From the NCBI RefSeq assembly GCF_017982655.1, contig NZ_JABXYX010000047.1:1-54037 (forward strand): DNA of 54,037 bases, given 5' to 3'. The first letter of the stretch is position 1. Every line of letters begins with the position of its first letter. Under the pieces are notes generated by a model that was not told the DNA's origin, made no database searches, and worked only from the letters and a program-made list of their open reading frames with translations. The translations under genes were made by a program, and so were the position numbers. The stretch is from Brasilonema sp. CT11 (lineage in GTDB: Bacteria; Cyanobacteriota; Cyanobacteriia; Cyanobacteriales; Nostocaceae). Positions 32,553 to 42,700 of the stretch are shown here, one piece after another.

Positions 32553-35500
32553 ATGGAAATAAATTTATCGAAAATGAATGAGAATAATTTAGTTAACTTT
32601 TCTGACAGCCTGACTAATCCCTTATCTAACCCTCTTTTAGCGGATTCTTCTTTTCCTGTCTTATCCCAATTCGGTAACAATGTGCGCTCGTCCTATGGGC
32701 AGGTAGTGGATTTGCCTACATTCGCTCAAGAGACATCAGCAGGTTTAACCTCAGAGATAAACTACATAGCTGAGGTCAAGGGAAATGACCCCCTTGTTGG
32801 TGGTAATGGGCAAGATTTGTTAGTTGGAAGTGTAGGAGAATACGGTTTTGTTAACTCAGATCCGTTCACCACTCAAAGCCCTCATCTGTTTGAACAAGTT
32901 TCTAGAGATTGGTTTAATCAGGTAAATCAGGAGGCTTATCCCCTGATTGGAATTATTGATTCTAACTTTAGTGCATCTAATGCCGATATCAACTACAACA
33001 ATCTCATTCTTGGTAGAGACAGCATTGAAAATGATAATAATCCGCTCTCCTCGATTGGCAGTTCTTCCGAACATGGAACGAATGTTTTAGGAATAATTGG
33101 TGCAACTCGCAACAACAATTTAGGGATTGATGGGCTTAACGATAAAGCCACTATTTGGTTAAGTAGTGCGATTGGTAGTGGAAAATGGGCAGATTCGGTG
33201 ATCGAATTTGTGGACAAAGCGAAGTCTCTCGGTCAGAAAAACGCGGTTCTCAACCTCAGTTTCGATCTCACGGAAATTAGTTCCGATGGAAGCGTTACCC
33301 CTCGTACCCAACTCACCTCGGCAGAATTAGCGGCTTTAAATTACGCCCAACAGAATCAAGTGATTATCGTGGCTGCGGCGGGGAATAGCGGAGTCGATCA
33401 AATGTCAGCGTTAGGGCGAGCCTCGCGATTATTTGATAATATTCTGACCGTGGGCGCTGCTGATGGCGACGGACGGGCGGATTATTCTAACTACGGGGAA
33501 TCTCTCGATATTCTCGCGAATGGGGGAACTCTCAACAATCCCGTTTTCTCCCTGAGCGCAATCGCTAAGGACGGAATCGCCCCAGTTGTCGGCACATCGA
33601 TCGCCACCGCCGAAGTCACGGGCGCAATCTCGCGGGTTTGGGGCGCAAATCCCGATTTGAACTACCGCCAAGTTTTAGACGTTATTAAAGAAAGCGCTCG
33701 CGATCTCGGACAGAGTGGGTGGGATGCGCAAACCGGTTTCGGACTACTCGATATCCGCAAAGCGCTGGAGTTAGTTGGATCTACCGCACCGACGCTCCAC
33801 GACTTCGTTAGCGATACGGGAAGTCGCTCGCTGGTTCTAGAAACGGAAAGATGGTACGATAACGGGGAAGCGCTCGCCAGCGAGCGCACGGTGGGACTTT
33901 TCGATTCGTTTAACCCGTTAAAACAAGCGGAGAAACAAATTTCTGGATGGATTGATCGGGGTAAAAACGAGGTATCGAAAAAATTAGGGAATCTAACCGC
34001 CCTAGTTCGTAATTCTGGTATTAGCGGATTAAAGAATGAAATTAGTGGCTACGTGGGGCGGCTCAACAGCGCTCGCAGTCAGTTGGACAATTTATTTAAC
34101 GATGTCTTTCGTTCCCCAATTGCTACTTTACAATCGAATATCTCCGCCTTAGCGAGGCAGATTCCCTCTTTGCCATCCGTTGATAGCTTACTTCCTGATG
34201 TCAATAACTTGAGCGTGAACCTACGTTCAAGTATCGATAACGTTAACAAGCAGTTCGCAGATATCAGCAAATCCGTAGAGAGTTTAGTTAAAAATTTCGA
34301 TTTTCAAGCCGCCGATGTTTTCTCTGGAAAAACTACATCGGTCGCTGATGCCTACAAAAAAATAGCCGATCTAGATAAACAGATTCTCTCTTTAGGCGAT
34401 GGCTTGACCGGTGAATTATCAAGTATCCTTCAATCTTCCGTCAGCTTACCCACTCAAACGCTGCAACCGCTTCGGGCTACCGTTGATAGCTTGGCGAGTT
34501 CGACAAACCGGATTTTAAGTCAATTCGATTTAAACGGTTTGTGGAATACGGCGAATAGTCGGGCCAGAGGGATTTTTAACGAGGTAAACGGCGCGATCTC
34601 TGGCATCAACAACCGAGCGAACGGTTTGATTGATTCGGTGACGAGATCGATAGATAGTGCGGGAAGAAATGCCACTAACGCCATAACTTCCATAGCCAAT
34701 AGCATTTTACCCAATTGGGTTCCCAAATCGATCCGGGATAGACTTCTAAGCGCGATCGACGATCCGATCGCTCCGGCTATTAAGGCGGCAAAAAATTTAC
34801 TATCGAATGAATTTACTAATTTCGCGAGAAGTAGCTGGAATTCGATAGCCGGTCAATTAACTTCGCTTGATCGCTCTTTATCCGGGTACGTCAATAGCGC
34901 GTTTAATACCGCTAGAAACTCCTTGCCAACGCTGACCGACTTTGCCAACGCCAGTTCCAGACTTAATTCTCTAGAAACAGCCGCTAATAGCCGCGTGTCA
35001 AGCATCATTGGGGATTTAGGACAACGCTTCTCCCCGACTCCCATTATCAACGGGTTGAAAAACACGGTAGAACAGTTTTCCTCCACTTTAGACCAGAAAA
35101 TCTCCGATGGCTTCTCGAAGTTTAACTCAACGGTAACGGAAAAAGTTAAATCAATCTGGGAGGATACTCAAAACGTCGCCACACAACTCGATAAAGAAGT
35201 ATTGGGAATCGAGCAATCCCTAAAAGACATCGACGCGATTTTAAAAAATCCTGGAAGTCTCGATGATATCGCTCGTCGTCGTTATGAGGATCTCAAGAAA
35301 AAATACGAATCCGCCAAGGCTTTCGTCAACGATAAGTTACTTAACCCCGTACTAGATAAAACCCTAGATATCTTGGACCAGGGGCCAGATCTCATCTCGC
35401 TGGGATTAAAACCCCTCAGTACCTCAGCCCTTAATTTAGAGGAGCTCTGGAAAGAGAAATGGAGTCCGATGATCGACAAGATCCTCGGTAGCGTCGATAA

Positions 35501-36782
35501 TTCCTATAATTCCTATACTAAATTCGCGAGTGCAGTCATCAATGTGCTAGAAGGACAGTACGAACAAGCATGGGGCGATCTTAAAAAAGCCTTTAGTAGT
35601 AGCTCGATCGGTCAGATTGTTGAGGCAGGGAAATTCGCACTAAGGGGTAAATGGGAAGATGCAGGAAAAACGGTTCTCAGTGCATTTGGTCTGCCGACAG
35701 ATTTTCTCGAAAATCAATCCAAACGCTTTCTCTCGTCTAATGCCGTCACCAGCGCCGCAGTTCAAGTTCTCAACGCGACCGGGGTCAGTGTGAAAACGGC
35801 GGAAGCCGCCCTTGATGGTATAGGTGGAATCGATAAATATAATGATGATGACCAGATTCAAGCGGTTCTAAACGTTATCGGCCAATATAATATCCCTTTG
35901 GTCAGTTACGTCGCCAAAGCCGCTAACCTAGCTTACGATCTTGCCAGAGCAGGTAAAGATTTTGTGTCTAACCCTGAGGCAGGGACGAAACGCTTGATTT
36001 CTGGGGTACTCTCCCTCGTCAAAGTGCAGAATGCTTCCGATTGGGTGGACGCGGCATTTTACCTCAAAGATGTGTTACGAGCCCCGCAAGTCGAAAAAGA
36101 TAATTTATACGTGGAAGCGATTGGCTCGGTGTTAGAAGCGATCGATGTGCGCAACGGGAAAAACTGGAGCAATGGCGCTTACGCCCTCTTCAACGCAGCC
36201 AAGGGCGATCAGAGTAAGTTCGCTGGCGCAACCGCTGACATCATCATCGCTGCTGTAGACATCGATAAAAATAAACAGCAGAATTTGAATAATTGGGCTA
36301 CCAACGTCTGGAAAGCAATCAGCGATCCGAAAAATAGCGTGAGTGTTATCGAGAAATACTTGGAGGGTGAGGCAAAAATTAAGCTGAAAAGTTCTTTCGA
36401 TCTCAAAGATGCTCAAGTTAATGCCCTTATGGGTCTGGTTAAGGATGTCTGGCAGGAAAAATACGACAATGCCTTACGAAAAGGTTTCGATCTTGCAGGA
36501 TTCGGTCAACAAGGCACGGCTCTAGTTGGCGCTTTCAAAGACCTTGGCTCGAAAGACTACACCAGTGCGATCGCTAAACTTGTCGGCGCGGTCGGTGGTT
36601 CCTCTATAGCGGCAACATTCGTTCAGGTTGGTGAAGCGATTGATAAAGTCAAATGGAATCTAGACTTTGACGAACCGAAGCAAAACGCGCTAATCGCTAT
36701 CCTTAACGCCGTCGGTAGTAATAATCCGAACCTTCAGAAACAACAAGCCCTAAAAGCCTTCGCCGGAACCCAAAAAGCCTAA
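32553..36782 (+). CDS. Subtilisin-fold (S8) protein with very long helical C-terminal region
   Basis: A 1409-residue protein. Residues 130-405 form an S8 peptidase domain with an intact triad: D136 in GIIDSNFS, H174 in SSEHGTNVLG, S349 in VVGTSIATAEV, plus oxyanion N278 in AAAGNSG. Residues 76-92 hold a single RTX-like nonapeptide (GGNGQDLLV), hinting at calcium binding or type I secretion; no Sec signal peptide is visible. Residues 415-1400 are almost wholly helical with many Asn, Ser and Lys, with heptad-like stretches (RSSIDNVNKQFADISKSV, VEQFSSTLDQKISDGFSK) and no transmembrane segment. Codon use is more GC-rich (TCG, GCG, CGA) than in neighbours, suggesting transfer. A MITE and a parvulin gene follow. 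Target unknown. Confidence 0.85.
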   Translation: MEINLSKMNENNLVNFSDSLTNPLSNPLLADSSFPVLSQFGNNVRSSYGQVVDLPTFAQETSAGLTSEINYIAEVKGNDPLVGGNGQDLLVGSVGEYGFVNSDPFTTQSPHLFEQVSRDWFNQVNQEAYPLIGIIDSNFSASNADINYNNLILGRDSIENDNNPLSSIGSSSEHGTNVLGIIGATRNNNLGIDGLNDKATIWLSSAIGSGKWADSVIEFVDKAKSLGQKNAVLNLSFDLTEISSDGSVTPRTQLTSAELAALNYAQQNQVIIVAAAGNSGVDQMSALGRASRLFDNILTVGAADGDGRADYSNYGESLDILANGGTLNNPVFSLSAIAKDGIAPVVGTSIATAEVTGAISRVWGANPDLNYRQVLDVIKESARDLGQSGWDAQTGFGLLDIRKALELVGSTAPTLHDFVSDTGSRSLVLETERWYDNGEALASERTVGLFDSFNPLKQAEKQISGWIDRGKNEVSKKLGNLTALVRNSGISGLKNEISGYVGRLNSARSQLDNLFNDVFRSPIATLQSNISALARQIPSLPSVDSLLPDVNNLSVNLRSSIDNVNKQFADISKSVESLVKNFDFQAADVFSGKTTSVADAYKKIADLDKQILSLGDGLTGELSSILQSSVSLPTQTLQPLRATVDSLASSTNRILSQFDLNGLWNTANSRARGIFNEVNGAISGINNRANGLIDSVTRSIDSAGRNATNAITSIANSILPNWVPKSIRDRLLSAIDDPIAPAIKAAKNLLSNEFTNFARSSWNSIAGQLTSLDRSLSGYVNSAFNTARNSLPTLTDFANASSRLNSLETAANSRVSSIIGDLGQRFSPTPIINGLKNTVEQFSSTLDQKISDGFSKFNSTVTEKVKSIWEDTQNVATQLDKEVLGIEQSLKDIDAILKNPGSLDDIARRRYEDLKKKYESAKAFVNDKLLNPVLDKTLDILDQGPDLISLGLKPLSTSALNLEELWKEKWSPMIDKILGSVDNSYNSYTKFASAVINVLEGQYEQAWGDLKKAFSSSSIGQIVEAGKFALRGKWEDAGKTVLSAFGLPTDFLENQSKRFLSSNAVTSAAVQVLNATGVSVKTAEAALDGIGGIDKYNDDDQIQAVLNVIGQYNIPLVSYVAKAANLAYDLARAGKDFVSNPEAGTKRLISGVLSLVKVQNASDWVDAAFYLKDVLRAPQVEKDNLYVEAIGSVLEAIDVRNGKNWSNGAYALFNAAKGDQSKFAGATADIIIAAVDIDKNKQQNLNNWATNVWKAISDPKNSVSVIEKYLEGEAKIKLKSSFDLKDAQVNALMGLVKDVWQEKYDNALRKGFDLAGFGQQGTALVGAFKDLGSKDYTSAIAKLVGAVGGSSIAATFVQVGEAIDKVKWNLDFDEPKQNALIAILNAVGSNNPNLQKQQALKAFAGTQKA

Positions 36783-36785
36783 CTT

Positions 36786-36916
36786 ATACTAAATCCGGAT
36801 TAGCTATTCCCTTTACTTTATTTGTCTTCTCTTCGCGCTCTTAGCGTCTATGCCCTTTGGACACGCTTTGCGAACGCGGTTCCTTAAAAAAGGAGTTTAT
36901 AAACCGGATTTAGTAT
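36786..36916. mobile_element. MITE with ATACTAAATCCGG ends
   Basis: A 131-base element with 13-base perfect terminal inverted repeats: ATACTAAATCCGG at 36786-36798 and CCGGATTTAGTAT at 36904-36916. The interior holds dispersed-repeat sequence (TTAGCGTCTATGCCCTTTGG). It lies in the gap between the subtilisin-fold gene and the foldase gene. No ORF of its own. Confidence 0.75.
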
Positions 36917-36962
36917 CACTCTACAGGAAGTTGCTTCTTTACTCTTTTACTTGGATGAACTA

Positions 36963-37808
36963 ATGGATAATATTTTTTTGGCTCCTTTAGATGAAAACAA
37001 TAAATCGGTTTTCCCCCTCTCGGAGTTCGATCAAACTGCCTCGAGTGTAAATAACGCTCTATTGGAAATTGATGGCGAAACGATCTCAATTGAGAGAGGA
37101 CTAACTTATCTAAAAAATTCAGGAGAACTACCCAAGTTTCTGTTAGAAATTAGCCGACAGTATTTACTGGAAAAAGAAATCAAAAACCGCTCAATTGAGG
37201 AGCCTAGCCTAGAGGTTTTAGAACAGTTTATCCTCGAACTGCGAATACAACAGGGATTAACAACCATTGATAAATTTCAAACTTGGTTGACCGAGCAAGG
37301 TTTAAATTATCACGATTTTCGAGAGAAAATGAAGTTTTTGATCCGGATAGAAGCTTGTAAGAGAAACATCGCAGAACCTCAACTGGAAAATTATTTCTTG
37401 GAGAGGCAGAAAGATTTAGAAAAACTGGTTCTTTCCCGTATCGTTGTCGCTCACGCCGGGATAGCGGGTGATTTAAAGAATAAACTTGAAGGGAGCCATG
37501 TGGATTTCGCCACACTCGCTAAGGAACACTCTATCGTAGATGATGCGGTGGTCGGGGGAGTGTTAGGGGTAATCGCTCGCGGTGATCTGCCGCAGGAGAT
37601 CGCTCAATCGCTGGAAAATTGCACGACCGGGCAAATTATCGGCCCTTTATTGATCGATGATCGGTATTGTTTATTGAAAGTGGAAGAAATTATTCCCACT
37701 CAGTTAAATAACGCTCTTAAACAGATGCTAGAAGGAGAATTGTTTGATAAGTGGTTAAAAAGTCGAATTCAATCATCAAATCTCCGATTATTACTATCAG
37801 AAAACTAG
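36963..37808 (+). CDS. Parvulin-type peptidylprolyl isomerase (SurA/PpiC-like)
   Basis: About 281 residues from the ATG at 36963; TTG at 36951 would add four. The N-terminal half is helical like the SurA/PpiC chaperone core (LPKFLLEISRQYLLEKEI, FILELRIQQGL). The rotamase domain spans about 160-255: LVLSRIVVAHAG, DFATLAKEHSIVDDAVVGG, GQIIGPLLIDDRYCLLKVEEI. No signal peptide or lipobox is visible, so it may act in the cytoplasm or be exported by an unusual route. Cyanobacterial genes of this type commonly accompany exported proteins and type I secretion genes. Here it lies downstream of the subtilisin-fold gene, probably assisting its folding or export. Confidence 0.85.
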   Translation: MDNIFLAPLDENNKSVFPLSEFDQTASSVNNALLEIDGETISIERGLTYLKNSGELPKFLLEISRQYLLEKEIKNRSIEEPSLEVLEQFILELRIQQGLTTIDKFQTWLTEQGLNYHDFREKMKFLIRIEACKRNIAEPQLENYFLERQKDLEKLVLSRIVVAHAGIAGDLKNKLEGSHVDFATLAKEHSIVDDAVVGGVLGVIARGDLPQEIAQSLENCTTGQIIGPLLIDDRYCLLKVEEIIPTQLNNALKQMLEGELFDKWLKSRIQSSNLRLLLSEN

Positions 37809-38199: not shown

Positions 38200-38740
38200 A
38201 GAACGCAACCTTTCAAAATTATTGTGGTGAAGTACTAGCATATCTTTGTAATGAAAAGTTATTTCCAGTTTTACCCAGTTTCTTTTAGCCGAGTTGTTTT
38301 TAGCCCAAAATCCAGAGGTATTATAGCCTAAAAATATGTCATTCCACAGTTGTTACAAAACTCAACATACATTGATTTTATCGTGTCGAGTTACTTAACC
38401 AATACTCAGAGATATTTACCCACAAATGATACATGAAGTTTTTCTTGATAAAAAAATATATTGTTTTATTAACTTATGTTTCATAATCACTTTTTTTCTA
38501 CAACGAATATATAATCGGAGATAACGTTTATACTAAGAACGCAATATTACCCTAAAACGCAATATGTACCTAATCATTTCACTTGGCGATACCGCCAGAT
38601 AATGCTGTTAAATGTTTGCATACACTTGCAATGGAACATCATGAGAGCACATGATTGCTTGTAGTTAGCAGAAGTTAATTTCACAAAGAGGTTGACTTAA
38701 GTCACGTTTACAGCTACAATTCTTAACAAATTTACATGAG
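38200..38740. other. AT-rich gene-free region upstream of the riboswitch
   Basis: About 540 bases without a credible gene. The promoter for the riboswitch-controlled transcript should lie in its right half. No tRNA, repeat array or small ORF was recognised. Confidence 0.4.
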
Positions 38741-38970
38741 TCTGCCTAATCCACGGATTGCCCAAAACATTTTGTTACATCGGGGTAAGTCTGGAGCGGA
38801 GGAACCAAGTTTGGGGCTAATCTCATAGGAGAGCGAAGAATGAAAAATGAAGAATGAATTTAGACAAAATTACTCCGGTTTTTTTTCCTGTCTTTTTTTT
38901 TCTTTCTTCTGTTCTGTGAGAGGGACATCTCTCAGTCCTAGCCCGTCAGCTAACTTCGTCGGCATTGAGA
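38741..38970 (+). ncRNA. c-di-AMP (ydaO/yuaA-type) riboswitch
   Basis: The conserved core of the c-di-AMP riboswitch is readable in order: GCCTAATCC (38744-38752), CGGAGGAACC (38797-38806), TTTGGGGCTAATC (38810-38822), a hairpin around GAGAGGGACATCTCTC, and CCCGTCAGCTAACTTCGTCG (38942-38961) followed by GGC, which pairs with the opening GCC. The same blocks, in the same order, make up known ydaO riboswitches. It sits about 170 bases before the ATG of the glycosyltransferase gene. In other bacteria, c-di-AMP binding usually turns expression off and controls potassium and osmolyte genes. Confidence 0.9.
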
Positions 38971-39140
38971 GGAGACTGAACGAGCCGCATTCTTATGAGT
39001 AATGCATTGTTCTCGTCAGTGTCCTTGGCTGGTATCTGTGCGCTTCGTTGTACCTGCCCTTGACTATGAGGAAAAGACCATATTACCTTTTCTTCCGGTC
39101 TGTTGAGGCAGGAAAAATTGCTATATGGTGAAGTTCAACT

Positions 39141-40418
39141 ATGTTACCGACGAGAAAACATCGCATAGCTCTAATTTCTGTTGATGGAGATCCTGCTGCA
39201 GAAATTGGACAAGAAGAGGCTGGAGGACAAAATGTCTATGTGCGTCAAGTTGGTTATGCCCTTGCGGAACAAGGTTGGCAGGTGGATATGTTCACCCGCC
39301 AAAGTAGTCCTGAGCAGGCTATGATTGTGCAGCATGGGCAATTATGTCGTACGATCCGATTGAAGACTGGACCTAGTGAGTTTATAGGGCGAGATCACTT
39401 ATTCGAGCATCTACCAGAATTTCTTGCAGAGTTTCAGGCATTCCAGCAGGAGCAAGGATTTCAGTACCCTTTGATTCATACTAACTATTGGTTATCCTCG
39501 TGGGTGGGTATGGAACTTAAAAAACAACAACCATTAATTCAGTTGCATACTTACCACTCTTTAGGAACAGTCAAGTACAATGCTATTTCTGATATTCCAG
39601 CAATTGCTAGCAAGCGAATAGCCGTTGAAAAAGCCTGTCTAGAAAGTGTGGAGCGAGTTGTTGCAACAAGTCCTCAAGAACAGCAACATATGCGAAGACT
39701 CGTTTCCACAAAAGGGAAAATTGAAGTCATCCCCTGTGGGACTGATATCGATAAGTTTGGGTTGATTCAAAGGTCTGCCGCACGGCAGGAGTTGGGAATT
39801 GCACCTGATGTTAAGATGATCCTCTACGTTGGTCGCTTTGATCAACGTAAGGGGATCGAGACATTAGTACGAGCCGTTGCAAAGTCTAGTTTGCGGGATC
39901 ATGGTAACCTACAACTTGTTATTGGAGGTGGTTATCGTCCAGGTCATACTGATGGGAGCGAGCGCGATCGCATTGCAAGCATTGTCGCTGAACTTGGATT
40001 GCAAGACTGTACAACCTTTCCAGGTCGCCTAGATGAGGCTGTTCTCCCCTCCTACTATGCAGCAGCAGATGTTTGTGTTGTACCTAGTCACTACGAACCT
40101 TTTGGTTTAGTTGCAATAGAAGCAATGGCTAGTCAGACTCCAGTCGTGGCTAGTGATGTTGGAGGGCTGCAATTTACAGTCGTACCTGAAGTGACTGGGT
40201 TACTCGTTCCCCCTAAAGATGAAGTTGCTTTTGCTACTGCTATTGACCGGATTTTGCTCAACCCAAATTGGCGAGATCAATTAGGTGAAGCTGGTAGACA
40301 ACGAGTAGAGATTGCCTTTAGTTGGTATAGTGTCGCATCCCGCCTGACTCAAATCTACACACATCTACTGGCTCAAACCATGCCCTCAATAGAGAGCAAA
40401 CCTCAAATTGCAGCTTAA
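39141..40418 (+). CDS. Family-4 glycosyltransferase, sucrose-phosphate-synthase-like
   Basis: A 425-residue GT-B glycosyltransferase. The N-terminal half begins HRIALISVDGDPAAEIGQEE and has GGQNVYVRQVGYALAEQGW (residues 28-46), a loop typical of the sucrose-phosphate synthase/MshA branch. The C-terminal half has the donor-binding strand ILYVGRFDQRKGI near 229 and the retaining E(x)7E motif EPFGLVAIEAMASQTPVVAS near 326. A retaining transfer from a nucleotide sugar is expected; the acceptor is unknown. No ribosome-binding site is obvious. The upstream c-di-AMP riboswitch suggests control by osmotic state, so a role in compatible-solute or envelope sugar synthesis is plausible. Confidence 0.9.
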   Translation: MLPTRKHRIALISVDGDPAAEIGQEEAGGQNVYVRQVGYALAEQGWQVDMFTRQSSPEQAMIVQHGQLCRTIRLKTGPSEFIGRDHLFEHLPEFLAEFQAFQQEQGFQYPLIHTNYWLSSWVGMELKKQQPLIQLHTYHSLGTVKYNAISDIPAIASKRIAVEKACLESVERVVATSPQEQQHMRRLVSTKGKIEVIPCGTDIDKFGLIQRSAARQELGIAPDVKMILYVGRFDQRKGIETLVRAVAKSSLRDHGNLQLVIGGGYRPGHTDGSERDRIASIVAELGLQDCTTFPGRLDEAVLPSYYAAADVCVVPSHYEPFGLVAIEAMASQTPVVASDVGGLQFTVVPEVTGLLVPPKDEVAFATAIDRILLNPNWRDQLGEAGRQRVEIAFSWYSVASRLTQIYTHLLAQTMPSIESKPQIAA

Positions 40419-40628: not shown

Positions 40629-40853
40629 ATGCTGAACATTGGAGATTACGCACAGCATCAAATCACAGGGCAGATAGGTCAAGTTATTGGTTATGGACAT
40701 CAAATACTGCATGGAGTCTATTTAACCACCTTAAAAGTACAAGCAAACAACCTTCAGGGAGTTGACAATCAGAAAAAATTTATTGAGGATGTCTACTCCG
40801 CCTGGATAATAGCAAATCCAACACAAGGCGACATGGCACTGCAAGGTTCATAA
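40629..40853 (+). CDS. Small conserved hypothetical protein
   Basis: 74 residues with an AGGGAG ribosome-binding site about 10 bases before the ATG. The first half, GDYAQHQITGQIGQVIGYGH, looks like a small SH3-like barrel of the kind found in several short cyanobacterial proteins. No known function. A clear terminator follows at 40879-40920, supporting an expressed gene. Confidence 0.65.
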   Translation: MLNIGDYAQHQITGQIGQVIGYGHQILHGVYLTTLKVQANNLQGVDNQKKFIEDVYSAWIIANPTQGDMALQGS

Positions 40854-41197: not shown

Positions 41198-42700
41198 TCA
41201 ATCCACTCCCAAAAGCGCTTCACCTCGTTGATAGAGTTCGCGAGCATATTCAGTCCAAACTCCTTGTCCCCAATATCGGAAACAACTTGTTTGCAATAAT
41301 AAGTTGTACAGTAATGCTCTTTGATAATTGGAACTCTGTGTGACTGAAGGATCTTGCTGAACTAATGAATCATATTTTTCATGAAATAAAGCACTGAGTT
41401 TCTTCATTGGATCTAAAACATTTTCGTAGCCTTGAACCCAACTTAAATTATTCGTCCAAGAAGCACCATCCATGTGAAATTGATGGTCTGTTTCCTTTAA
41501 TTCTGTTATTGCTTTTTCCACAGCTTCTGATGTAGAATTTCCTGGTTCTACTCGCTGCCAAATTTTGTGTTGCTGTACGGCTTGACAGGTTGGATATTCA
41601 TCTGGATTCACACCAGCAGCTTCAATTAATTCCAAATATTCAGTACCGTTGAGTGCGACAATTCCTGAATGATTGTTTCCGGAATCGCGAATTTCATGAT
41701 AGATTCTAAACAAATCGCGGGGATATTCGTTCATCATAACGCCGCCATTTTCCCCATCAGCAATTTGAGTGACAAGCGAGGGAACTTTTACATTACCAAT
41801 TTGCTGTTGACTTCTTCCTTTAGCCTCAAAATAAGGCTGCATCTGAGCTACTAACTTTGTGTCGGAACCTTGAGTTTTGATTAATGCTGTAATGCTGATG
41901 GTTTCACCTTTAGAATTGCGGGCAAGCAATCGATTTGGAATATATTTATCCTCATGACGTAAACCCAAACCATCCAGACGTTCTACAGAATGTTCTTGCA
42001 CCATCAACCAACGATATCCGCATTCTTTGAGAGCTTTGATATATTCAAACAAAGTATCTGGATGGTTTGGTAAGTGCATTTCTGGGGGAGAAAAGCCCTT
42101 CACGCGCTGTAGGGCATCATAGCCGAAAATGGCTGCAAAGTAATGTTGCCAAGCTTGAATTTGGAGTTTAATGTCAGGAATTGGTGTGGAAGGAATAACC
42201 GCATGACTCCACATTGTTCCCAACCATTCGACGTAAGGCTGATATTGAGAGTCACAAGTCAAACGTTTGAGATTATTGATAATATCCTCTCGCCCCATTT
42301 GTTGTAACCCCCACAACAAATTACCCGAGTAATCGAGCATAATTCGAGGATTGCAACCTTCGGATATAAGTTGGGGAATAAAATCACCCATGCGACTATA
42401 ACACCAGGCAAATGGTTGTGCGTTATGGTTATCTCCTTGATGGGGATGTTCAAACATATACTGGAGATGGCTGATAATTTCCCCGTGAGCACCCGCAGGA
42501 ATGCTGGGTTGATGCATATGGAGAGCACAAGCAAAGCCAGCCGTGATATTTTCTAGGCGGAGATTGGTGGTGTTGAGAAATACAGGCTTATCTTGCTGAA
42601 CCACAGAATTAATTTCTGCCTCACAGCCGCAAATATTGGGTAATCCTGTCCGGAATTCTTCCAAAATTGGTAGATTAGCAGATGATTTTGTTGCAGTCAT
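41198..42700 (-). CDS. Glycoside hydrolase family 57 protein
   Basis: A 500-residue GH57 enzyme. ACALHMHQPSIPAGAHGEI (from about residue 55) carries the first conserved HxHQP motif. GNLLWGLQQ, WLGTMWSHAVIPSTP (with the WSHA block) and GFSPPEMHLPN with its Glu near 216 follow the usual GH57 order; the catalytic Glu is in PPEMHL. The C-terminal part contains GENGGVMMNEYPRD and GASWTNNLSW. GH57 enzymes are retaining amylases, branching or 4-alpha-glucanotransferases. Length and sequence fit the uncharacterised cyanobacterial group. A 33-residue peptide gene lies 16 bases upstream and may be cotranscribed. Confidence 0.88.
   Translation of the reverse strand: MTATKSSANLPILEEFRTGLPNICGCEAEINSVVQQDKPVFLNTTNLRLENITAGFACALHMHQPSIPAGAHGEIISHLQYMFEHPHQGDNHNAQPFAWCYSRMGDFIPQLISEGCNPRIMLDYSGNLLWGLQQMGREDIINNLKRLTCDSQYQPYVEWLGTMWSHAVIPSTPIPDIKLQIQAWQHYFAAIFGYDALQRVKGFSPPEMHLPNHPDTLFEYIKALKECGYRWLMVQEHSVERLDGLGLRHEDKYIPNRLLARNSKGETISITALIKTQGSDTKLVAQMQPYFEAKGRSQQQIGNVKVPSLVTQIADGENGGVMMNEYPRDLFRIYHEIRDSGNNHSGIVALNGTEYLELIEAAGVNPDEYPTCQAVQQHKIWQRVEPGNSTSEAVEKAITELKETDHQFHMDGASWTNNLSWVQGYENVLDPMKKLSALFHEKYDSLVQQDPSVTQSSNYQRALLYNLLLQTSCFRYWGQGVWTEYARELYQRGEALLGVD

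What the first reader, a model, noticed from the sequence alone, without database searches (positions are those of the whole stretch)
38741..39141. c-di-AMP riboswitch controlling a sucrose-phosphate-synthase-like glycosyltransferase
The core blocks CGGAGGAACC, TTTGGGGCTAATC and CCCGTCAGCTAACTTCGTCG match the ydaO/c-di-AMP aptamer in order and spacing. The only gene downstream is a family-4 glycosyltransferase. This suggests that a cyanobacterial sugar or osmolyte enzyme is governed by the potassium/osmotic messenger c-di-AMP. The gap between aptamer and start codon (about 170 bases) contains a nested stem (CCTGCC...GGCAGG with AGACC...GGTCT) that could be the expression platform.
Basis: partly seen in the sequence, partly recalled or inferred. 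Interest (0 to 1): 0.78.

Follow-up and report, generated by a model that had tools for sequence, protein, structure and literature searches.

The report
c-di-AMP riboswitch before sucrose-synthesis gene
An RNA sensor for the stress messenger c-di-AMP appears to sit directly in front of one of two sucrose-making enzyme genes in this cyanobacterium, and the pairing is kept in many relatives, which suggests a testable way for these bacteria to tune a protective sugar.

Summary
The downstream gene (39141-40418) is very probably a single-domain sucrose-phosphate synthase (SPS): 54% identical to the assayed Thermosynechococcus enzyme Tll1590, with 11 of 11 active-site residues checked kept. Of 56 orthologues found in 217 genomes of the family, 55 carry the aptamer 127-176 bases before the start codon; 0 of 15 sampled lower-identity relatives do. 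The genome also encodes a diadenylate cyclase and a sucrose-phosphatase-family protein. No terminator-like site was found. The linker is strongly conserved and shares a stem module with an ABC-transporter leader of the same genome, so control at translation is more likely; whether c-di-AMP turns the gene on or off could not be settled. A new member of a known kind: control of osmoprotectant synthesis by cyanobacterial c-di-AMP riboswitches was already suggested (Nelson 2013, known to me only through citing papers). The conserved SPS target, beside a second SPS without the aptamer, is the useful part.

The parts
38692..38720 (+). probable promoter, TTGACT - 17 - TACAAT
   Evidence: 10 of 12 consensus matches, but such sites were found no more often than in shuffles (3 found, 2.8 expected). 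Support comes from conservation: TTGAC stands 38-57 bases before the 5' aptamer block in 54 of 60 leaders; misses are L100, L076, L073, L044, L045, L046.
38740..38979 (+). c-di-AMP riboswitch aptamer (RF00379)
   Evidence: 58.5 bits, cut-off 38, E 4.5e-11, cmscan range 38749-38979; 5' end moved to the conserved block GTCTGCCTAATCCA.
38971..39024 (+). stem I of the linker (GGAGACTGAACGAG with CTCGTCAGTGTCC, apical GCATT with AATGC)
   Evidence: 94.7% of cells paired in the long helix and 92.7% in the apical one over 55 distinct leaders; few changes on both sides.
39027..39058 (+). stem A of the linker (GGCTGGTA with TACCTGCC); as drawn it excludes stem II
   Evidence: 91.4% of cells paired; the same module lies in the ABC-operon leader of this genome. 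ViennaRNA rarely forms it (mean 0.02-0.09 over 54 leaders).
   Evidence: 90.7% of cells paired; mean pairing 0.74-0.82 over the 49 leaders where it could be scored; arms kept in L147 and L148 although the loop is mostly lost, lower arms not kept in L143 and L144.
39127..39133 (+). GGTGAAG, probable ribosome binding site (GAGGTGAAG in most relatives)
   Evidence: Position before the start codon in the aligned leaders.
39141..40418 (+). sucrose-phosphate synthase gene (single GT4 domain pair, 425 aa)
   Evidence: Best solved relative Tll1590/TeSPS, E 1.4e-135; 218 of 402 aligned residues identical; 11 of 11 named active-site residues identical.
40629..40853 (+). 74-aa ORF of unknown function, possibly in the same unit
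   Evidence: tblastn match downstream of the SPS gene in 17 of 25 orthologue loci, 0 of 15 lower-identity loci and 0 of 4 Laspinema/Oscillatoria loci; no Pfam or NCBIfam match.

Best explanation
The leader of this sucrose-phosphate synthase gene is a c-di-AMP riboswitch. A sigma-70-type promoter at about 38692-38720 starts an mRNA whose 5' end folds into the RF00379 aptamer. Binding of c-di-AMP steadies the aptamer and its closing helix, and the roughly 160 bases up to the start codon refold so that access of the ribosome to GGTGAAG...ATG changes (translation control, since no terminator is seen). I think it more likely (about 0.6) that c-di-AMP lowers expression, as in the characterised members, so that the enzyme is made when c-di-AMP falls. 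The enzyme makes sucrose 6-phosphate, which a phosphatase coded elsewhere turns into sucrose, a compatible solute. Shown here: the aptamer match, its conserved place, the enzyme's family and active site, the presence of cyclase and phosphatase genes. Inferred: ligand binding by this RNA, translation as the step, the sign, and the role.
For: RF00379 at 58.5 bits. Aptamer directly upstream of 55 of 56 orthologues in 217 family genomes, 127-176 bases before the start codon, and of 4 of 4 distant Laspinema/Oscillatoria relatives. In a tree of 46 proteins the 24 aptamer-bearing rows and two others form one supported set (100/98); the label needs 3 changes against 15.6 in shuffles, 0 of 500 as low. 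Active site of an assayed SPS kept. Diadenylate cyclase domain 128.7 bits and sucrose-phosphatase family 301.9 bits in the same genome. No terminator-like site in 38300-39300. Characterised members are off-switches (passages of PMC9960051 and PMC6488665).
Against: No binding or expression data for this RNA. The loop reads GGGGCUAAUC where the Rfam consensus has GGGGUGAAUc. Folding the linker with or without the aptamer core gave no consistent change at the ribosome site, so neither the translation model nor the sign is supported by thermodynamics. Pairs changed on both sides are no more frequent than in shuffles. Published c-di-AMP responses to stress differ between species: salt lowered it in Fremyella diplosiphon and raised it in Anabaena (PMC5986932, passages). 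One orthologue (L101) and one further member of the clade by the tree (L113) lack any RF00379 match even at E <= 10.
Confidence: 0.72

Rival explanations
1. Same aptamer and same target, but c-di-AMP switches the gene on: with ligand bound, stem A (GGCTGGTA with TACCTGCC) forms and keeps TACCT/CCTGCC from pairing further down towards the ribosome site.
For: Stem A and stem II share TACCTGCC and exclude each other as drawn. In the ABC-operon leader of the same genome TACCT could pair directly with the AGGT before its start codon (by eye). The aptamer core GTCAGCTAA can pair with TTGGCTGGT, kept in 97.2% of cells, which would link the aptamer to stem A.
Against: Characterised members repress. 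The core:TTGGCTGGT pairing shows no covariation and breaks in the outgroup, and folding hardly forms it (0.08) or stem A (0.02-0.09).
Confidence: 0.25
2. The RNA is a c-di-AMP aptamer, but it acts on transcript ends or stability (for example a terminator type not covered by the scan, or processing) and not on translation.
For: The best-studied members act by termination (PMC6488665, PMC9960051, passages). Only a simple consensus scan for intrinsic terminators was run.
Against: 0 terminator-like sites found in 38300-39300; the T-run at 38877-38895 lies inside the aptamer's variable loop, not after the aptamer.
Confidence: 0.2
3. The leader keeps the fold but has changed ligand or lost binding; the gene is governed by its promoter alone.
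For: Ligand binding is untested, and the loop GGGGCUAAUC departs from the consensus.
Against: 55 of 56 orthologues keep the whole aptamer over the cut-off, with fixed core blocks and variable loops. The same GGGGC(G/T)(T/A)ATC type of loop is seen in leaders of the ABC-operon kind (L149).
Confidence: 0.07

Closest known systems
c-di-AMP riboswitch class (ydaO/yuaA leader, RF00379), e.g. B. subtilis ydaO/kimA and B. thuringiensis kdp
   Same: Full-length aptamer match over the curated cut-off, in the 5' leader of an osmolyte-related gene.
   Different: Those end in an intrinsic terminator and control potassium transporters (PMC6488665, PMC9960051, passages); here no terminator-like site was found and the target is a biosynthetic enzyme.
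Cyanobacterial c-di-AMP riboswitch before slr0753 (Synechocystis)
   Same: Same RNA class in the same phylum; reported as verified (PMC10117731, passage).
   Different: Its target is a putative chloride efflux transporter; its leader was not compared here.
c-di-AMP riboswitch of the ABC-transporter operon in the same genome (L149)
   Same: Aptamer plus stem I and GGCTGGTA...TACC module in the linker.
   Different: Shorter linker without the long stem II; transporter operon. In G010 and G025 the two systems are divergent neighbours.
Tll1590, sucrose-phosphate synthase of Thermosynechococcus elongatus (PDB 6kih)
   Same: 218 of 402 aligned residues identical; 11 of 11 named active-site residues kept.
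   Different: Its leader was not examined; it lies near the glucosylsucrose synthase gene tll1591 (PMC9909042).

Membership tests
c-di-AMP riboswitch (RF00379) | Covariance score over the curated cut-off of 38 bits | tested here: met
   58.5 bits, model 1-134 of 134.
c-di-AMP riboswitch (RF00379) | Core blocks GGAACC, TGGGG..AATC and CCCGTCAGCTAAC in order | tested here: met
   the loop is GGGGCUAAUC and not GGGGUGAAUc.
c-di-AMP riboswitch (RF00379) | Place in the 5' leader of a gene, kept through evolution | tested here: met
   55 of 56 orthologues.
c-di-AMP riboswitch (RF00379) | Binding of c-di-AMP | not testable with these tools
   Needs in-line probing or calorimetry.
Terminator-type c-di-AMP off-switch (kimA, kdp) | Intrinsic terminator between aptamer and gene | tested here: not met
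   0 terminator-like sites in 38300-39300. Not a defining feature of the aptamer family as such.
Sucrose-phosphate synthase, cyanobacterial single-domain type (TeSPS) | Residues binding UDP, glucose and fructose 6-phosphate (A48, Q51, R105, H158, R178, R249, R253, E331, P332, L335, E339) | tested here: met
   11 of 11 identical in the window protein; also 24 of 24 clade rows except A48 (23 of 24), and 21 of 21 other rows. So the residues do not tell the two paralogues apart.
Sucrose-phosphate synthase, cyanobacterial single-domain type (TeSPS) | Enzyme activity | not testable with these tools
   Needs an assay.
NCBIfam TIGR02472 (sucrose-phosphate synthase, glycosyltransferase domain) | Score over curated cut-off 576 | tested here: not met
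   131.3 bits. The assayed TeSPS also fails it, 144.8 bits, so the model does not cover this lineage; not filed there.
NCBIfam TIGR03449 (MshA) | Score over curated cut-off 462.5 | tested here: not met
   276.7 bits; TeSPS 288.6.

The most novel reading that the evidence does not exclude
Filamentous cyanobacteria have split sucrose synthesis between two SPS paralogues, one without a c-di-AMP aptamer and one under a c-di-AMP riboswitch that works at translation through a stem module shared with an ABC-transporter operon, so that c-di-AMP sets a solute-making enzyme and a transporter together; the switch may even turn the gene on, against the rule for the class.
Probability: 0.25. Interest if true: 0.68.

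Novelty: new member of a known kind. Interest (0 to 1): 0.5.

Why it matters
A review calls the signalling that triggers ggpS and spsA expression in Synechocystis enigmatic, while naming the response regulator OrrA for Nostoc PCC 7120 (PMC6753628, passages). A riboswitch before one SPS paralogue in 55 of 217 genomes of this family (aptamer in 54 of those 55, since G022 lacks it) gives a direct, testable route from c-di-AMP to a compatible solute, with a natural control in the same cell: the second SPS without the aptamer (shown for this genome, L105, and seven others sampled). It also puts a name to a conserved target behind the general statement that these riboswitches govern osmoprotectant synthesis in cyanobacteria.

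Tried and rejected
Anti-P1 pairing (GGCATT with AATGCC): 93.3% of cells paired and one co-varying leader (L092), but it breaks in the four Laspinema/Oscillatoria leaders; not adopted. Aptamer core with TTGGCTGGT: kept through invariance only, breaks in the outgroup, hardly formed in folding; kept as part of a rival only. A short helix TTGAG (just after the closing helix) with CTCGA/CTTGA came out of RNAalifold and is paired in 96.7% of cells, its five pairs varying on one side only; suggestive, not proven. From the stems I argued first for an off-switch, then for an on-switch; folding did not decide, so the sign is left open. A glucosylsucrose-synthase identity was dropped because that enzyme is Tll1591, not Tll1590. 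An upstream ATG at 39125 that would open a short overlapping ORF was seen by eye; leaders with GAGGTGAAG lack it; not pursued. No structure prediction was run, since a solved homologue exists.

Papers: PMC9909042 (part 1 of 6 of the text, and passages); PMC7264703, PMC5986932, PMC10117731, PMC4284465, PMC5897029, PMC6753628, PMC9960051 and PMC6488665 (passages only). Nelson 2013 and Mantovani 2022 were not held; what they say is taken from citing papers. That SPS is not named in print as a target rests on ten searches of an open-licence library, of which I read listings and the passages above; Nelson 2013's supplement may well list it.

Counts with dropped rows: L074 was left out of the tree because its matched stretch held stops. 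L073 (partial gene) is in the tree but not in the residue counts. L076 was left out of alignment A1. In the module scan of L001-L033 18 of 33 loci gave no core on the forward strand and were not read.

Full report
Observation. The only Rfam match over threshold in the 54-kb window is the c-di-AMP riboswitch aptamer RF00379 at 38749-38979 on the + strand, 58.5 bits against a cut-off of 38, E = 4.5e-11, model complete. cmscan put the 5' strand of the closing helix on ATTGCCC. The block GTCTGCCTAATCCA at 38740-38753 is the better candidate: its pattern occurs upstream of the aptamer's 3' end in 60 of 60 leaders compared, and it resembles the consensus cGCcgAAuccc printed. The own genome holds three such aptamers: this one; one before a nitrate-type ABC permease, binding protein, ATPase and a universal-stress-type protein; and one before an 81-aa ORF and a 433-aa protein with no Pfam match.

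The gene. ORF 39141-40418 has GT4 domains. Its nearest solved relative is Tll1590 of Thermosynechococcus elongatus, E 1.4e-135, shown to make sucrose 6-phosphate (PMC7264703, passages). Identity is 218 of 402 aligned residues, 54.2%. With the crystal-chain numbering shifted by three so that the named residues fit, 11 of 11 residues that the paper names for UDP, glucose and fructose 6-phosphate are identical. They are equally kept in the paralogues, so they say SPS but do not separate the copies. NCBIfam's SPS and MshA models score below their cut-offs, but so they do for the assayed TeSPS. The genome has a second SPS at C391 (70% identical), a diadenylate-cyclase domain at C376 (128.7 bits) and a sucrose-phosphatase-family protein at C314 (301.9 bits; a second, weak one at C350, 28.3 bits).

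Conservation of the pair. RF00379 is common in this family (89 of 99 genomes sampled) and was found in 93 of 386 genomes of a phylum sample. Close relatives of the enzyme were sought in 217 family genomes: 56 genes in 55 genomes at E <= 1e-198, 72-100% identical. Upstream of these I looked in the window, in 25 loci L079-L103 (24 positive) and in 30 loci L119-L148 (30 positive): 55 of 56. The miss is L101 (G022), where no core block was found, no RF00379 match appears even at E <= 10, and a 5S rRNA match lies about 1.9 kb upstream. Aptamer end to start codon is 127-176 bases in the 55. As a contrast I took 15 of the many lower-identity matches (L104-L118, 65-70%): 0 of 15 have the aptamer. Eight of the 15 are second SPS copies from genomes that also hold the aptamer-bearing one, this genome included. 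One of the 15, L113 (G109, another family), falls inside the aptamer clade in the tree and has no RF00379 match even at E <= 10, though fragments resembling the leader can be seen by eye. A scan of named genomes (Brasilonema, Scytonema, Tolypothrix, Nostoc, Cylindrospermum and others) found RF00379 somewhere in 39 of 41. Four distant relatives in Laspinema and Oscillatoria (69-70% identical) have it directly upstream, 4 of 4, while L056, L070 and L074 do not, 0 of 3. In a tree of 46 proteins the 24 aptamer-bearing rows with L101 and L113 form one supported set (100/98). The label needs 3 changes, against 15.6 in shuffles, 0 of 500 as low. The simplest reading is one gain and two losses, though the tree alone does not show it.

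Leader anatomy. TTGAC stands 38-57 bases before the 5' block in 54 of 60 leaders. In the window it is TTGACT-17-TACAAT; sites of that quality are no more frequent there than in shuffles, so conservation is the evidence. The aligned stretch from the aptamer's 3' part to the start codon has a mean column identity of 74% over 59 leaders. On it (55 distinct rows) the long helix of stem I is paired in 94.7% of cells, its apical part in 92.7%, stem A in 91.4%, stem II in 90.7%, and a helix TTGAG:CTCGA in 96.7%. The share of paired cells exceeds every one of 500 shuffles for both alternative structures, and falls to 37-49% when the partner strand is slid. But the number of pairs changed on both sides (4 and 5) is no more than in shuffles (377 and 158 of 500 as high). 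The stems are plausible, not proven. L147 and L148 have lost most of the stem II loop yet keep its arms, for it; L143 and L144 no longer match in its lower arms, against its being needed. Stem A and stem II share TACCTGCC. The module stem I plus GGCTGGTA...TACC is also in the leader of the ABC operon of this genome. Of the 15 loci among L001-L033 that the script could read, I judge by eye that 12 have it (2 SPS leaders, 10 of the ABC kind, one of these with GGTTGGTA) and 3 do not (L002, L011, L015). In G010 and G025 the SPS gene and an ABC operon run apart from a common region, each with its own aptamer.

How it works. No terminator-like site was found in 38300-39300, so control at ribosome access is the more likely output. 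Characterised members lower expression when c-di-AMP binds (PMC9960051 and PMC6488665, passages), and I take that as the prior. ViennaRNA folding of the linker with and without the aptamer core gave no consistent change at the ribosome site: mean unpaired 0.32, 0.34 and 0.36 in the three set-ups; 8 leaders up and 20 down by more than 0.05 of 59 in one comparison, 10 up and 14 down in the other. Folding cannot treat the aptamer's tertiary fold, so this is weak evidence either way; the sign is open. Published c-di-AMP levels do not settle it: salt lowered it in Fremyella diplosiphon and raised it in Anabaena, and sorbitol raised it in Fremyella and Synechocystis but not in Anabaena (PMC5986932, passages).

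Known or new. c-di-AMP riboswitches in cyanobacteria are known; one is reported as verified (slr0753; PMC10117731, passage), and control of osmoprotectant synthesis has been suggested from the genes they stand before (Nelson 2013 as cited in PMC5986932). In ten searches of an open-licence library I saw no paper naming SPS as the target (calls listed under Tried and rejected), but Nelson 2013 itself was not held. I call it a new member of a known kind with a well-supported target.

Noticed in passing
window 40629-40853 (+): 74-aa ORF after the SPS gene, matched downstream in 17 of 25 orthologue loci and in none of 15 lower-identity loci; no family match. A candidate partner of the riboswitch-controlled SPS.
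   Followed up: partly
window 41198-42700 (-): 500-aa protein with motifs that look like glycoside hydrolase family 57 by eye (recalled), yet no Pfam match at E <= 10 and no NCBIfam match at E <= 0.001; found beside the SPS gene only in L034, L079 and L080 of the loci searched.
   Followed up: partly
window 32553-37808 (+): 1409-aa protein with an N-terminal subtilase domain, followed by a PpiC-type protein related to a peptide-maturation family but below its cut-off.
   Followed up: no
L096 (G010) and L097 (G025): Two divergent c-di-AMP riboswitches back to back, one for SPS and one for a nitrate-type ABC operon.
   Followed up: partly
L149 2350-2680, L001 and other loci: The ABC-operon leader shares the linker module with the SPS leader; TACCT there could pair directly with the AGGT before its start codon (by eye).
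   Followed up: partly
L150 4558-5859 (+): 433-aa membrane-protein-like ORF downstream of the genome's third c-di-AMP aptamer, with no Pfam match at E <= 10.
   Followed up: no
L076 2594-2772 and downstream: Trichormus-like genome where the SPS copy is broken by stops (same pieces in G063) while the aptamer upstream still scores 49.1 bits.
   Followed up: no
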